A stretch of 6,513 nucleotides of DNA, taken from assembly GCA_012523155.1 (NCBI GenBank), contig JAAYJB010000069.1, forward strand, positions 1 to 6,513. The letters are read 5' to 3'. Every line of letters begins with the position of its first letter. Within the stretch, counting starts at the first letter, position 1. The translations under genes and the position numbers were made by a program. The DNA comes from Synergistaceae bacterium (GTDB lineage: Bacteria > Synergistota > Synergistia > Synergistales > Aminobacteriaceae). This document shows positions 743 to 6,513 of the stretch, piece by piece. Under the pieces are notes generated by a model. That model did no database searches. It was not told the origin of the DNA and was given only the letters and a program-made list of their open reading frames with translations.

Positions 743-1183
743 TTACAGTATGAGCTTGCTTCCTCCGCCCTGCTTGCCTCCCATACGGTTCAACTGCTGG
801 AGGACTGCGGCAGGGGCTACGTCAATTTTAGGTTTCTGCTGCTGCCGGCTCATGGCATCCTGCATTTTGCGCTCGTACTCCTCCATACCTTTTTTTAGAG
901 CTTCCACGTCTCCCCTGATCCATTGCAGAATATTTTCCGCTATGGCTTTCACTACATCTTCACCCGGCTCCTCTGCGATGAGACCGAGTTCTTTCAGAAC
1001 ACGGTGCTCCTCACGGATGGAATTCGCTACATCATCGTCGGTTATGATCCCCTTTTTATAGAGCACACGTGTAATGATGTTGAACTTGCTCTTAGAGTTC
1101 TCATCGCTCAGGACCAGGCTGTCAACCCTGGCCAGAAGCATCGACAATATTTCATCCAGACTTACCTGCATCGGCATGGCCAT
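743..1183 (-). CDS. Conserved-looking helical protein of unknown function, downstream of ychF
   Basis: I do not recognise this 146-residue protein. It has no signal peptide or membrane segment, so it should be cytosolic. Residues 7-28 and 52-110 look strongly helical. Residues 90-116 are highly charged and heptad-like (GDVEALKKGMEEYERKMQDAM), suggesting a coiled coil. Residues 113-118 are Gln/Lys-rich, and the tail (134-146) is Gly-rich and basic, ending SKLIL. The ATG at 1183 is preceded by AAGGGGAGG ending eight bases upstream, an excellent ribosome binding site, so this start is better than the Met codons at positions 3 and 5. It lies 50 bases after the stop of the ychF-like gene on the same strand with no terminator between them, so co-transcription is likely, and it ends at the shared hairpin 710-735. 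A weak internal promoter may also serve it. The helical, charged make-up would suit a small adaptor or regulator, but that is inference. Confidence 0.85.
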   Translation of the reverse strand: MAMPMQVSLDEILSMLLARVDSLVLSDENSKSKFNIITRVLYKKGIITDDDVANSIREEHRVLKELGLIAEEPGEDVVKAIAENILQWIRGDVEALKKGMEEYERKMQDAMSRQQQKPKIDVAPAAVLQQLNRMGGKQGGGSKLIL

Positions 1184-4099: not shown

Positions 4100-4113
4100 C
4101 AAATAGTTATTTG
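4100..4113. promoter_or_regulatory. Palindrome CAAATA-GT-TATTTG, possible operator
   Basis: A 6-bp perfect inverted repeat with a 2-base centre overlaps the first three bases of the proposed -35 of the glycoside hydrolase gene. The position suits a repressor site. It is AT-rich, so chance is possible, and I cannot name a regulator. Confidence 0.35.
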
Positions 4114-4139
4114 TACCTCATCCAAAGTTTTTTTAAGAT
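4111..4139 (+). promoter_or_regulatory. Possible sigma-70 promoter of the NagZ-like gene
   Basis: TTGTAC (4111-4116) and TAAGAT (4134-4139) are separated by exactly 17 bases and match the consensus at 3/6 and 4/6 positions. Transcription near 4146 would leave a 25-base leader holding the ribosome binding site. The in-frame TTG at 4111 lies inside this promoter, which argues against translation starting there. Confidence 0.4.
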
Positions 4140-4170
4140 CTTCTCCATAAACAGGAGGCGGAGAGTTTCA

Positions 4171-5847
4171 ATGGGGAAAATATGGAAATGTGGTCTCTTT
4201 TTTCTCGTCTTACCTTTAATGACAGTTGCTTTTTCTTCCTCCGGAGCGTCAAAATCCGCGATCCGCACAATGTCTCTTGAGGAAAAAGTCGGTCAGATCA
4301 TGATGTGCTTCTTCGAAGGATCCTCCCTCTCACCCCATCTTGAAAGAGTGATCATGGAGATGAAGACGGGGGGGGTTATCCTCTACTCAAGCAGGGGAAA
4401 CATCCGGTCCGCAGAACAGGTAGCGGAGCTCGTGGAAGATATGCAGAAAGCAGCCGTCAGGTCAAATTCATGGCCTCTTTTTGTCGCAGTCGACCAGGAA
4501 GGAGGGCTGGTGAACCGGATAAACGAAGGAATAACCCTTTTTCCCGGCAACATGGCGCTTGGTGCTGCAGGCGACGAAAGGCTGGCAGCCAGGGTTGCGG
4601 GCATTATGGCTGAAGAGCTCGCGGGAATGGGCATCAATGTGAATTTCGCCCCTGTTGTGGATGTGAACAATGATCCTCGCAATCCCATCATAGGCGCCCG
4701 TTCCTTCGGATCCTCCCCTGAACTCGTTTCACGGCTGGGCAGTGCCATGATCTCCGGCTTCCTGGAAAAGGGGATCCTCCCCTGCGCGAAACATTTCCCC
4801 GGTCACGGCAATACGGGCATCGATTCCCACACGGGGCTGCCGGTGATCAGTTCCTCCGTCGAAGACCTGAAAGCGACGGAACTGCCTCCTTTCCGTGCGG
4901 CGATAGAAGCGGGCGTACCGATGATCATGACTGCACATGTTCTGGTCCCGGCACTCGACCCTGAGAGCCCGGGAACGCTTTCCCCCGGAATCCTCGGAAT
5001 GCTCAGGGAGGAAATGGGATTTTCCGGAATCATTGTCACTGATTCCATGGGAATGGGAGCGCTTGAAAAGGGATGGGGCATGACCCGGGCGGCAATAGAA
5101 GCTTTCAACGCAGGAGCTGATATTCTCCTCTTCGGAGCAGACCGCGGACACCTGGAAGAAGAACATGCCGGGGTTTTTGAAGCCTTACTGGAAGCGTGCA
5201 GAAGCGGAGTTATTTCCGAAGCACGCCTCAACGAATCCGTGGAGAGAATTTTGAAAACAAAAGCCCGGCTGGGACTTTTCCTCCCAAAGAGGCCATCCGG
5301 TAAAACGGCTCTTCGGAAATCAGCGAACGGTGAACAGACAGCAGCCGAGGCAGCGTCGAAAAGCATAACGCTTGTTCGGAACTGGAGCAGGGCAACCGGA
5401 CAGCTCCGGTCGGGGGAGAAAACACTGCTGATCTGGCCCGGGGAAAAAATAGCCGCAGGGAAACAGCTGGCCTCTTTATGCAACAATTTTTCGGTCGTTT
5501 CAGTTCCGGAAAAACCACGAAAGGAAGATATTCAGGCTGTTCTCGAAAAAGCCAGCAATGCTTCAGTTATTTTTGCAGGAGAATATGACAGCTGGAAAAA
5601 TCCCGATTGGATGGAACTTCTGAAAAGCATGGGAGAGAGCCGTATCTATCTTCTCTCCGCGAGGAGCCCCTACGCACTTTCTTCTCTTCCTTCGGCAGGA
5701 GGAGCCCTGGTGCTTTACAGCGACATACCGTCAGTTATTTCTTCTGCAGCCGCCATTCTGAACGGAACGATGATTCCCCGGGGAAAACTCCCAGTCGACC
5801 TTCCGGGAATCCACTCTGCTGGCTGGGGCCTCGAAAATATGGACTAA
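4171..5847 (+). CDS. nagZ: Exported glycoside hydrolase family 3, NagZ-type beta-N-acetylglucosaminidase
   Basis: From the ATG at 4171 the protein has 558 residues. AGGAGGCGGAGAG just upstream and a clean signal peptide (residues 1 to about 26, cleavage near SSGA-SKS) choose this start over the in-frame TTG at 4111. The catalytic TIM-barrel domain (about 30-370) shows VDQEGG (107-112), NFAPVVDV (158-165), GARSFG (175-180), KHFPGHGNTGIDSH (207-220) and VTDSMGMGA (289-297). In the NagZ family Asp218 and His220 act as the acid/base dyad and Asp291 as the nucleophile; all are present. Residues 385-558 form the second alpha/beta domain, ending in IPRGKLPVDLPG and GWGL, as in the two-domain Bacillus NagZ and unlike the one-domain cytosolic E. 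coli enzyme. No lipobox, so it is probably periplasmic or secreted. The expected job is removal of terminal GlcNAc from muropeptides or chitooligosaccharides in wall recycling or scavenging. A G8 run lies at codons 66-69. Confidence 0.93.
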   Translation: MGKIWKCGLFFLVLPLMTVAFSSSGASKSAIRTMSLEEKVGQIMMCFFEGSSLSPHLERVIMEMKTGGVILYSSRGNIRSAEQVAELVEDMQKAAVRSNSWPLFVAVDQEGGLVNRINEGITLFPGNMALGAAGDERLAARVAGIMAEELAGMGINVNFAPVVDVNNDPRNPIIGARSFGSSPELVSRLGSAMISGFLEKGILPCAKHFPGHGNTGIDSHTGLPVISSSVEDLKATELPPFRAAIEAGVPMIMTAHVLVPALDPESPGTLSPGILGMLREEMGFSGIIVTDSMGMGALEKGWGMTRAAIEAFNAGADILLFGADRGHLEEEHAGVFEALLEACRSGVISEARLNESVERILKTKARLGLFLPKRPSGKTALRKSANGEQTAAEAASKSITLVRNWSRATGQLRSGEKTLLIWPGEKIAAGKQLASLCNNFSVVSVPEKPRKEDIQAVLEKASNASVIFAGEYDSWKNPDWMELLKSMGESRIYLLSARSPYALSSLPSAGGALVLYSDIPSVISSAAAILNGTMIPRGKLPVDLPGIHSAGWGLENMD

Positions 5848-5852
5848 GGAAA

Positions 5853-6038
5853 TCAAACGGCAAGAGAAAGCTTTTTACGGCAGGGAAGAGAGGAGATCAG
5901 TGAAGACGGGCTGACTGACTCCGTGAGGAACCAGCATCCGTCTTCACCTTTATTCCATACGCTGCTGCATTCGGCGTGGCCGGCAATTACAGGGCTTTCA
6001 CAATACCAGTTTCCGCAGCTGTCTTTCATCCAGGACAT
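5853..6038 (-). CDS. Small Cys/Trp-containing protein, unknown function
   Basis: I do not recognise this 61-residue protein, but the expression signals say it is real. GAGGGAGGAAG sits just before the ATG, and a near-consensus promoter lies 47-75 bases upstream. The protein has no signal peptide or membrane helix. Five cysteines lie at 8, 13, 24, 35 and 53, giving the spacing C-x4-C-x10-C-x10-C-x17-C, with three Trp residues (3, 11, 17-36 region includes Trp28 and Trp36) near them and a conserved-looking core KDSCGNWYC (5-13) and KGEDGCWFLTE (30-40). A metal-binding or redox role for the first four cysteines is possible but inferred. The last third (41-61) is Ser/Leu-rich and ends in basic residues. 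The stop is 5 bases from the stop of the convergent NagZ-like gene. A long inverted repeat covers codons 31-47. Dyads around the promoter suggest tight regulation. Confidence 0.72.
   Translation of the reverse strand: MSWMKDSCGNWYCESPVIAGHAECSSVWNKGEDGCWFLTESVSPSSLISSLPCRKKLSLAV
5900..5947 (+). terminator. Long hairpin, probable terminator of the NagZ-like gene lying inside the small gene
   Basis: A perfect 10-bp repeat (GTGAAGACGG, 5900-5909, with 5938-5947) is extended after a 2-base bulge by four more pairs (GCTG 5910-5913 with CAGC 5932-5935) and a small inner TCC/GGA stem. On the plus strand it is followed by CTTTATTCC, a weak T-rich tail. It lies 52 bases after the NagZ-like stop, so it may end that transcript, but it is also coding sequence of the antisense 61-aa gene. 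Confidence 0.5.
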
Positions 6039-6058
6039 TTTTCTTCCTCCCTCATATC

Positions 6059-6072
6059 TGAACTCATGTTTA
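6059..6072. promoter_or_regulatory. Degenerate copy of the TGAA-N6-TTCA dyad near the transcription start
   Basis: TGAAC-TCAT-GTTTA differs from perfect TGAAC-N4-GTTCA symmetry at one position. It lies about 7-20 bases after the predicted transcription start of the 61-aa gene, a place where a bound repressor would block transcription. It resembles the palindrome at 6139-6152, which also has GAAC-N4-GTT. Confidence 0.35.
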
Positions 6073-6084
6073 TTCTATGAGGTA

Positions 6085-6113
6085 TTTATAACATCCCGAA
6101 CTTATAATGTCAA
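6085..6113 (-). promoter_or_regulatory. Strong near-consensus sigma-70 promoter of the 61-aa gene
   Basis: On the minus strand a perfect TTGACA (6108-6113) and TATAAA (6085-6090, 5/6) are separated by exactly 17 bases, and TGT directly before the -10 adds an extended -10 element. Predicted transcription starts near 6078, giving a leader of about 40 bases that ends in the strong ribosome binding site at 6042-6052. It is the best promoter match in the window. Confidence 0.8.
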
Positions 6114-6122
6114 CAGGTGTTG
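6111..6122. promoter_or_regulatory. Small dyad CAACA-GG-TGTTG at the -35
   Basis: A 5-bp inverted repeat with a 2-base centre overlaps the upstream half of the -35 element and abuts the next palindrome. It may be part of a composite operator or chance. Confidence 0.25.
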
Positions 6123-6134
6123 AATATATATTCA
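6121..6134. promoter_or_regulatory. Perfect 14-bp palindrome TGAATATATATTCA, probable operator
   Basis: The sequence is its own reverse complement and has the form TGAA-N6-TTCA. Its centre is about 50 bases upstream of the predicted transcription start of the 61-aa gene. The TGAA-N6-TTCA form is typical of ArsR/SmtB metal-sensor operators; activators of other families could also bind here. Confidence 0.5.
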
Positions 6135-6137
6135 CGT

Positions 6138-6153
6138 ATGAACCATTGTTCAT
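6138..6153. promoter_or_regulatory. Second palindrome ATGAAC-CATT-GTTCAT, probable operator
   Basis: A 6-bp perfect inverted repeat with a 4-base centre contains TGAA-N6-TTCA at 6139-6152, the same pattern as the neighbour at 6121-6134, with centres 18 bases apart. It also contains GAAC-N4-GTTC, the core of the LexA box of Bacillus and relatives. It begins directly after the stop of the partial minus-strand gene, so it might instead form a short RNA hairpin, but no T-run follows. Confidence 0.5.
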
Positions 6154-6513
6154 TTATAGATTTTTCACATAGGGCTCCCGCTCTCCTCCGGGCCTCCTCA
6201 TGCCCGGCACAAGCCAGGTCGTTTCAGGGCCTGAACAGTTTCCGTGAAGGGTGCGTATCAACACCCTTCCCGCAGCAATTCCCAGTTCAAAGGCGGGCCA
6301 TTCCATGGAATACAATGTTTCTGGAACTCTTCCATCCGGAAGGGTGCAGACGCAACCCCTCTCCGGCGGGAGCCCGTTCCAGAGTGTTCCGTCAAGTACC
6401 GGAAATTCATTTCCTTCAGGCACTTCTCCACCGGGGATAAGGTCAGAAAGAAAGGGAAAACACGGGGAGTTTCCCGAATAGTATCGAAGCGGGCGTCCTC
6501 CAGAGATCTCCTC
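6154..6513 (-). CDS. C-terminal part of an unrecognised protein, 5' end outside the window
   Basis: The minus strand is open from the right edge to the TAA at 6154, giving the last 119 residues. The frame has no stop up to the edge, so the GTG at 6423 is not needed as a start. Codon use resembles the neighbours (GGA for Gly, CTT and CTC for Leu, AGG for Arg), unlike the plus-strand frames here. The fragment is rich in Pro, Gly and Glu, with RYYSGNSPCFPF near the left end, VLDGTLWNGLPPERGCVC in the middle and GIAAGRVLIRTLHGNC followed by a basic, Pro-rich tail. No membrane segment is seen. I cannot assign a family. It is on the same strand as the 61-aa gene and 115 bases upstream of it; the strong promoter between them argues for separate control. 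Confidence 0.6.
   Translation of the reverse strand, partial: EEISGGRPLRYYSGNSPCFPFLSDLIPGGEVPEGNEFPVLDGTLWNGLPPERGCVCTLPDGRVPETLYSMEWPAFELGIAAGRVLIRTLHGNCSGPETTWLVPGMRRPGGEREPYVKNL

What the first reader, a model, noticed from the sequence alone, without database searches (positions are those of the whole stretch)
5853..6153. Highly promoted 61-aa Cys/Trp protein as an isolated, regulated unit
A tiny gene with no family I can name has the best promoter in the window (TTGACA, 17 bases, extended TATAAA), a strong ribosome binding site and several dyads around the promoter. Cysteines at 8, 13, 24 and 35 with nearby Trp residues suggest a metal-binding or redox-active small protein. Genes with such investment in control usually answer a specific stress. 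The link to metal or redox stress is inference.
Basis: partly seen in the sequence, partly recalled or inferred. Interest (0 to 1): 0.72.

Follow-up and report, generated by a model that had tools for sequence, protein, structure and literature searches.

The report
Small Trp-repeat protein in pyrimidine regulon
This is a real, conserved 61-residue protein gene of Synergistota bacteria that lies next to the gene of a regulator predicted to control pyrimidine synthesis, so the unnamed protein likely helps adjust the cell's supply of pyrimidine building blocks rather than answering metal or redox stress.

Summary
In detail: the ORF (6038-5853, minus), the extended -10 promoter (11 of 12 consensus bases; next best site in the window 9) and the dyads are real, and purifying selection shows a gene. 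The metal/redox reading fails for the family: the window's cysteines recur in 2-6 of 26 distinct relatives, while W3, K5, D6, G9, W11, W28, K30 and W36 are invariant in those 26. They form two repeats, each predicted to be a beta-hairpin. The family was found only in Synergistota (39 of 185 genomes); no Pfam, NCBIfam or PDB entry matched above its cut-off.

Its context points to pyrimidines. In 18 of 39 genomes a LacI-family regulator gene lies directly upstream; in the window it is the cut ORF 6154-6513. A LacI-type palindrome, TGCAACCG[G/C]TTGCA, precedes pyrR at 42 of 49 sites looked at, and lies (0-2 mismatches) upstream of the small gene in 13 of 36 genomes scanned. In two genomes a small-gene copy stands directly before pyrR-pyrB-pyrC.

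The window's own clade lacks that palindrome near the gene. There a covarying stem joins the transcription start to the Shine-Dalgarno region and may silence read-through mRNA. The biochemical function is inferred: a small modulator of pyrimidine control.

The parts
5853..6038 (-). 61-aa small protein gene; repeats W3-Y12 (WMKDSCGNWY) and W28-W36 (WNKGEDGCW), each predicted to be a beta-hairpin, then a variable tail
6046..6051 (-). Shine-Dalgarno GGGAGG
6085..6090 (-). -10 TATAAA (extended, TGT at 6093-6091)
6108..6113 (-). -35 TTGACA
6078..6078 (-). predicted transcription start (7 bases after the -10; assumed, not measured)
   Evidence: inference used
6076..6082 (-). 5' arm CCTCATA of the covarying stem, 2 bases after the -10
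6050..6056 (-). 3' arm TATGAGG of the covarying stem, overlapping the Shine-Dalgarno region by two bases
6110..6123 (.). dyad TCAAC-N4-GTTGA over the -35; AAC-N4-GTTGAC is kept in 10 of 10 f1 upstream regions that follow the regulator gene
   Evidence: read; function unknown
6139..6152 (.). dyad TGAAC-N4-GTTCA just after the regulator stop codon; same or similar dyad in G001, G003, G034, G071, G072, G009
   Evidence: function unknown
6059..6072 (.). second such dyad, inside the leader, only in the window and its sister contig
6154..6513 (-). C-terminal part of a LacI-family regulator gene, cut by the contig end
   Evidence: (orthologues)

Best explanation
The gene encodes a conserved small protein of Synergistota with two Trp-Lys-Asp/Gly-Asn-Trp repeats, each predicted to fold as a beta-hairpin, and it likely serves pyrimidine homeostasis as a partner of the adjacent LacI-family regulator, which is predicted to repress pyrimidine genes. 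Shown: the family, its invariant residues and purifying selection; adjacency to the regulator gene; the palindrome TGCAACCG[G/C]TTGCA before pyrR and, in other lineages, upstream of the small gene or of the regulator gene. Inferred: that this regulator binds that palindrome, that pyrimidine supply is the signal, and that the small protein binds a protein of the pathway (the regulator, the uridine-kinase-like neighbour or PyrR) through its Trp-rich hairpins. In the window's clade the gene has its own strong promoter; messages that read through from the regulator gene would fold so that the start region is masked, whereas messages from the own promoter would start inside the 5' arm and stay open, so the protein would be made only when its own promoter fires.
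For: Family and selection. Adjacent LacI-family gene, same strand, in 18 of 39 small-gene genomes from four families, f1, f5, f7, f8. Regulator present in 34 of 39 small-gene genomes (G000 counted through the window) against 41 of 146 others. Palindrome before pyrR at 42 of 49 sites looked at, of 53 found; regulator present in 43 of 47 genomes with a site against 31 of 138 without. Palindrome with 0-2 mismatches upstream of the small gene in 13 of 36 genomes scanned and before the regulator gene in 6 of 30 loci; of 372 other genes in the fetched stretches 16 have one, all sharing a site of the small gene, the regulator or pyrR (read from the coordinates). Small-gene copy directly before pyrR-pyrB-pyrC in G041 and G050. 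Uridine-kinase-like gene before the regulator in f1 and f8, directly before the small gene in f2. Stem: 35 of 35 cells paired in 5 distinct sequences, 5 of 7 pairs changed on both sides, 2 of 120 permutations of the 3' arms reach that.
Against: In the window's own clade no copy of the palindrome lies near the small gene (best 5-6 mismatches). Ten of 39 genomes show neither adjacency nor palindrome (G040, where the gene lies near a contig end, G039, G056, G035, G044, G177, G180, G182, G183, G184; G180 and G182 were not scanned for the palindrome). Reversed control patterns are not rare: 15 against 34 and 12 against 19 sites. Co-occurrence is not corrected for descent, and many f4 regulator hits cover only the N-terminal half. 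The C-terminal (effector) domain is poorly conserved. Stem masking is strong only in genus g1: g8 0.5-1.2, G016 3.5, G009 3.2 kcal/mol, against a background median of 1.4; against shuffled upstreams p is 0.01-0.16 in g1. The Shine-Dalgarno itself is not more paired in the window's long message (unpaired 0.64 against 0.58), and the duplex test gives p 0.74 for the window. No expression or binding data.
Confidence: 0.55

Rival explanations
1. A metal-binding or redox-active small protein made under metal or redox stress.
For: Five Cys and one His in 61 residues; several near relatives carry three or four Cys, mostly in the loop between the hairpins; a sub-threshold Pfam zinc-domain match, E 0.22, 12.1 bits against a cut-off of 25.
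Against: The window's Cys recur in 2-6 of 26 distinct sequences, and some members have none (for example L012 keeps one, at its last residue; L014 has none). No metal or thiol gene was recognised among the neighbours named.
Confidence: 0.06
2. A regulon passenger with another job: a small binding protein (for example for nucleic acid or a nucleobase) that is merely co-controlled with pyrimidine genes and touches neither regulator nor enzyme.
For: Trp/Lys-rich hairpins could stack on bases (inference); copies exist away from the regulator gene, e.g. G033 and G045.
Against: Repeated tight adjacency to the regulator gene in four families and to pyrR in two genomes.
Confidence: 0.27
3. The small gene answers a signal unrelated to pyrimidines in the window's clade; there the LacI-family neighbour is only a positional neighbour and the unassigned dyads bind another regulator.
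For: No pyr palindrome near the gene in that clade; other conserved dyads instead.
Against: The same regulator gene stays adjacent in all nine f1 genomes of that clade, and five of them (G001, G002, G003, G071, G072) have TGCAACCGCTTGCA before pyrR.
Confidence: 0.11
4. Not a protein gene but a leader or small RNA.
For: Short length, structured leader.
Against: Frame kept across ten families; dN below dS in the window pair and in 9 of 10 further pairs over the first 37 codons, the tenth having no synonymous change; no Rfam match in the window.
Confidence: 0.01

Closest known systems
LacI-family regulators of nucleotide and nucleoside genes: PurR, CytR, UriR (PMC4052901, passages seen)
   Same: LacI-family HTH; palindromic operator with central CG; nucleotide genes as targets; likely autoregulation in some genomes.
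   Different: Below the NCBIfam cut-offs of CytR and UriR; shorter protein (about 280 aa); predicted to sit on pyrR-pyrB in Synergistota; paired with an undescribed small protein.
sigG (spoIIIG) read-through hairpin of Bacillus subtilis (PMC5942855, passages seen)
   Same: A stem that can form only in messages reading through from the upstream operon, not in those from the gene's own promoter, would mask the start region.
   Different: Other phylum and gene; the B. subtilis hairpin has 20 or more pairs, here 7 plus longer-range pairing in g1; here only predicted.
Trp-containing repeat families Choline_bind_1 (PF01473) and W_rich_C (PF07483), and SCNM1_acidic (PF15805)
   Same: Short W-x-K-D-like and G-x-W motifs; weak matches (2, 3 and 12 of 20 members at E <= 1; best 0.061, 0.12, 5.3e-5).
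   Different: Where the cut-off was shown the scores are below it (SCNM1_acidic 21.7 of 27, W_rich_C 15.4 of 26.2 bits); two repeats, no secretion signal seen.
CodY-like regulon of Synergistetes (PMC9318921, passages seen)
   Same: A regulon inferred for this phylum from a palindromic motif.
   Different: AT-rich arms and amino-acid genes; another protein family.

Membership tests
LacI-family transcription regulator (upstream neighbour) | LacI-type HTH (PF00356) above cut-off | tested here: met
   Three orthologues, 60-62 bits against 27; in the window itself the N-terminus lies beyond the contig end, membership by 46% identity over 110 aa
LacI-family transcription regulator (upstream neighbour) | palindromic operator with central CG near targets | tested here: inconclusive
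   Palindrome before pyrR, small gene and regulator gene in many genomes; binding not shown; absent near the window gene
CytR / UriR equivalogs | score above NCBIfam cut-off | tested here: not met
   CytR 44.7 of 436, UriR 42.9 of 550 bits
Choline-binding / W_rich_C repeats | Pfam gathering score | tested here: not met
   E 0.061 and 0.12 at best in 20 members; W_rich_C 15.4 of 26.2 bits in P0014; the cut-off of Choline_bind_1 was not shown
SCNM1_acidic (PF15805) | Pfam gathering score | tested here: not met
   21.7 of 27 bits in P0016 over 14 residues of repeat 2; 12 of 20 members match at E <= 1, best 5.3e-5
Cys-based metal/redox protein | conserved Cys ligands | tested here: not met
   2-6 of 26
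Read-through-silencing hairpin (sigG type) | 5' arm at or upstream of the start, 3' arm at the SD, pairing conserved | tested here: inconclusive
   Geometry and covariation met in 8 of 8 g1/g8 sequences (hand-set register); masking energy high in g1 only; start site not measured
Pyrimidine regulon | expression follows pyrimidine supply | not testable with these tools
   No expression data held

The most novel reading that the evidence does not exclude
A LacI-type pyrimidine repressor spread over much of Synergistota works with its own dedicated protein effector, the two-hairpin Trp-repeat protein, which binds the shortened regulator (or PyrR) and sets pyrimidine synthesis; in the window's clade its making is insulated from regulator-gene read-through by an mRNA stem that forms only in the long message.
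Probability: 0.22. Interest if true: 0.78.

Novelty: new variant of a known kind. Interest (0 to 1): 0.6.

Why it matters
It gives an undescribed small-protein family a metabolic address and a short list of near-invariant residues to test, and it predicts a LacI-type pyrimidine regulator in a phylum where, as PMC9318921 says, genetic manipulation is not yet established. Small proteins tied to core metabolism are hard to place; here synteny and palindrome evidence agree across several families.

Tried and rejected
Metal/redox role: rejected as family-defining. Known families: no Pfam or NCBIfam match above a cut-off for the small protein; sub-threshold ones are zf-RING_13, SCNM1_acidic, SH3_VIII-1_N and W_rich_C. 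PDB by sequence: best E 0.038; Foldseek: best E 1.7. Rfam: no match in the window; in 11 relatives' loci one TPP riboswitch, on the other strand in L061. TGAAC-N4-GTTCA as a regulon marker: few sites in four genomes, controls of similar number; the second site in G001 and G003 precedes what reads like an amino-acid-binding-protein gene. Pyr palindrome near the window gene: searched, not found. Duplex test of SD pairing: 11 of 36 upstream regions with p < 0.05, the window not among them (p 0.74); its combined p is not used because the rows are related. Literature: searches for a LacI-type pyrimidine regulator found none for Synergistetes (listings, and passages of PMC4052901). PMC6429828 (Thermovirga lienii intergenic regions) and PMC9318921 were seen as passages only and do not name this gene there; supplements were not read. 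Dropped rows: G010 and G118 (E 0.008-0.009, partial or with a stop) from the 41 hits, giving 39. The 26 sequences counted do not include the f10 members with only repeat 1 intact (G177, G183, G184 read; G180, G182 matched only in repeat 1; G183 has Q for K5) nor the second G041 copy (E for G9). G033 was left out of the promoter and stem counts.

Full report
Check of the observation. The 61-aa ORF (6038-5853, minus), its cysteines (8, 13, 24, 35 and a fifth at 53), the promoter and the ribosome-binding site are as described. The promoter matches 11 of 12 consensus bases with a 17-base spacer and an extended -10; the next best site in the window matches 9. The scanner misses it because of its rule for position 6 of the -10.

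It is a gene. The window's assembly holds a second contig, C38, 90% identical over 2 kb and with the same gene order; most likely it comes from a close relative in the same bin (inference). Between the two copies dN is 0.021 and dS 0.115, with no amino-acid change in the first 39 codons. In ten further pairs the first 37 codons show dN below dS in nine; the tenth has no synonymous change.

The family. A single-sequence search found matches at E <= 1 in 36 of 59 genomes, the weaker ones chance-like. A profile search of the 185 held Synergistota genomes gave 41 with E <= 0.01, of which I keep 39. In named genomes the pattern hit 167 stretches, of which 13 encode a relative; all 13 are Synergistota. 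The 5.8-billion-protein search gave 35 proteins, none with a precomputed Pfam domain and nearly all unnamed or hypothetical; one source label, 'ketosteroid isomerase-like' on P0002, is not borne out by any domain. The alignment shows two repeats, MWxKDxxGNWY and WxKxxxGxW, and a variable tail. In 26 distinct sequences W3, K5, D6, G9, W11, W28, K30 and W36 are invariant, N10 and G34 are in 25, and the window's Cys are in 2-6. Five f10 members, not among the 26, keep only the first repeat, and one of them has Q for K5. AlphaFold2 gives two beta-hairpins, with ten-residue blocks of pLDDT 85-92 at the start of each, in two runs with different first sequences; pTM is low (0.31, 0.29), so how the hairpins pack is unknown. 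Foldseek found no convincing relative in the PDB. The strongest known-family match is SCNM1_acidic, below its cut-off and limited to 14 residues.

The neighbourhood. The ORF cut by the contig end at 6154-6513 (minus) is the C-terminal part of a LacI-family regulator (46% identity over 110 aa to the G003 orthologue; Pfam LacI in three orthologues). The regulator lies about 115-272 bases upstream on the same strand in 18 of 39 small-gene genomes: G000 (by the window), G001, G002, G003, G009, G016, G034, G071, G072, G057, G064, G065, G041, G050, G038, G047, G055 and G070. In eight f1 and two f8 genomes a uridine-kinase-family gene lies upstream of the regulator, mostly next to it; in f2 it directly precedes the small gene.

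The pyrimidine link. Some relatives carry CAACCGGTTG upstream of the small gene, in several over its promoter. In G045, G053, G117 and G041 the TGCAACCGGTTGCA of the genome lies before pyrR (PyrR and PyrB by NCBIfam). Across 185 genomes GCAACCGGTTGC has 34 sites in 32 genomes (reversed control 15). Of the 30 sites annotated, 25 lie before pyrR, 1 before pyrB, 1 before the small gene and 3 were not assigned. TGCAACCGCTTGCA has 19 sites in 17 genomes (control 12): 12 before pyrR by annotation, 5 more by position (G001, G002, G003, G071 and one of two in G072), one before an NCS2-family nucleobase permease gene whose substrate is not settled, and one not assigned. 43 of 47 genomes with either site have the regulator, against 31 of 138 without; this is not corrected for shared descent, and many f4 regulator hits cover only the N-terminal half. 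The palindrome with 0-2 mismatches lies upstream of the small gene in 13 of 36 genomes scanned, of 39 (G055, G180 and G182 not scanned; G033, G041, G042, G043, G045, G050, G051, G052, G053, G058, G066, G067, G117), and with 1-2 mismatches 31-38 bases before the regulator start in 6 of 30 loci. Of 372 other genes in the fetched stretches 16 have such a site within 350 bases, and by their coordinates all 16 share a site of the small gene, the regulator or pyrR. In G041 and G050 a second small-gene copy stands directly upstream of pyrR, pyrB and a dihydroorotase gene. Against this reading, the window's own clade has no such palindrome near the small gene, and ten genomes show neither adjacency nor palindrome.

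The leader. In genera g1 and g8 a stem joins bases just after the -10 to bases at the SD: CCTCATA/TATGAGG in the window and C38, CCCGTAA/TTACGGG, CCCGTGG/TCACGGG, CCTCGTG/CACGAGG and TCTCGTG/CACGAGG in relatives. All pairs are standard (G-U included) in 8 of 8 sequences and 5 of 7 pairs change on both sides; 2 of 120 permutations of the five distinct 3' arms reach that (register set by hand). The 5' arm starts 2-3 bases after the -10, so a message from this promoter would lack part of it, whereas a message reading through from the regulator gene would contain it all. Opening the start region costs 7.5-12.6 kcal/mol more in the long than in the short message in the five g1 sequences; 0-4 of 67 neighbour genes reach that, and against shuffled upstreams p is 0.01-0.16. 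In g8 the difference is 0.5-1.2, in G016 3.5, in G009 3.2. In the window the masking lies at the start codon rather than at the SD. The arrangement resembles the sigG read-through hairpin (PMC5942855, passages seen). No terminator-like site lies between the two genes in the window or in G003. The start site is assumed, not measured.

Mechanism. I commit to a small, probably cytosolic protein of the pyrimidine regulon that modulates a pathway protein. Regulon membership is well supported across the family (I put it at about 0.75) but rests on adjacency in the window's own clade. The molecular act is inference: the tight adjacency, the short regulator and the invariant Trp, Lys and Asp make a contact with the regulator the most testable guess.

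Novelty. LacI-family regulators of nucleotide genes are known (PurR, CytR, UriR; PMC4052901, passages seen). A LacI-type regulator of pyr genes in Synergistota was not found in the searches, which cover only the open-access library held. The small protein family has no name in Pfam, NCBIfam or the PDB copy searched.

Noticed in passing
L076, L084, L085, L088, L089, L082, L081, L103-L105 (f7, f8, f9, f10), about 60-110 bases upstream of the small gene: A conserved stretch CGAATAAG[A/G][T/C]G with unknown role; a looser CGACGAAGATGA stands at a similar place in f5. Not in the window.
   Followed up: partly
L146, L147, L149, L150, L151, upstream of pyrR: A possible short leader ORF followed by a terminator-like hairpin with a T run before pyrR, like a pyrimidine attenuator (read only).
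   Followed up: no
G000:C38 (L002, L108) against the window: A second contig 90% identical to the window over 2 kb with the same gene order: the bin probably holds two close relatives.
   Followed up: partly
window 743-1183 (-): 146-aa ORF with no Pfam or NCBIfam match above cut-off.
   Followed up: no
window 4111-5847 (+): Glycoside hydrolase family 3 gene whose stop lies 5 bases from the small gene's stop (convergent); this neighbour is kept in the g1 and g8 genomes.
   Followed up: partly
L081, L082, L101, L102; P0003, P0013, P0017, P0020 (f7 type): The frame stays open upstream of the MW start and gives 102-105 aa predicted proteins with a conserved Arg-rich N-terminal part; whether it is translated is open.
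   Followed up: no
G045, G053, G117, G041, G050: Two small-gene copies per genome; in G045, G053, G041 and G050 one has the pyr palindrome upstream and the other does not (the second G117 copy was not scanned).
   Followed up: partly
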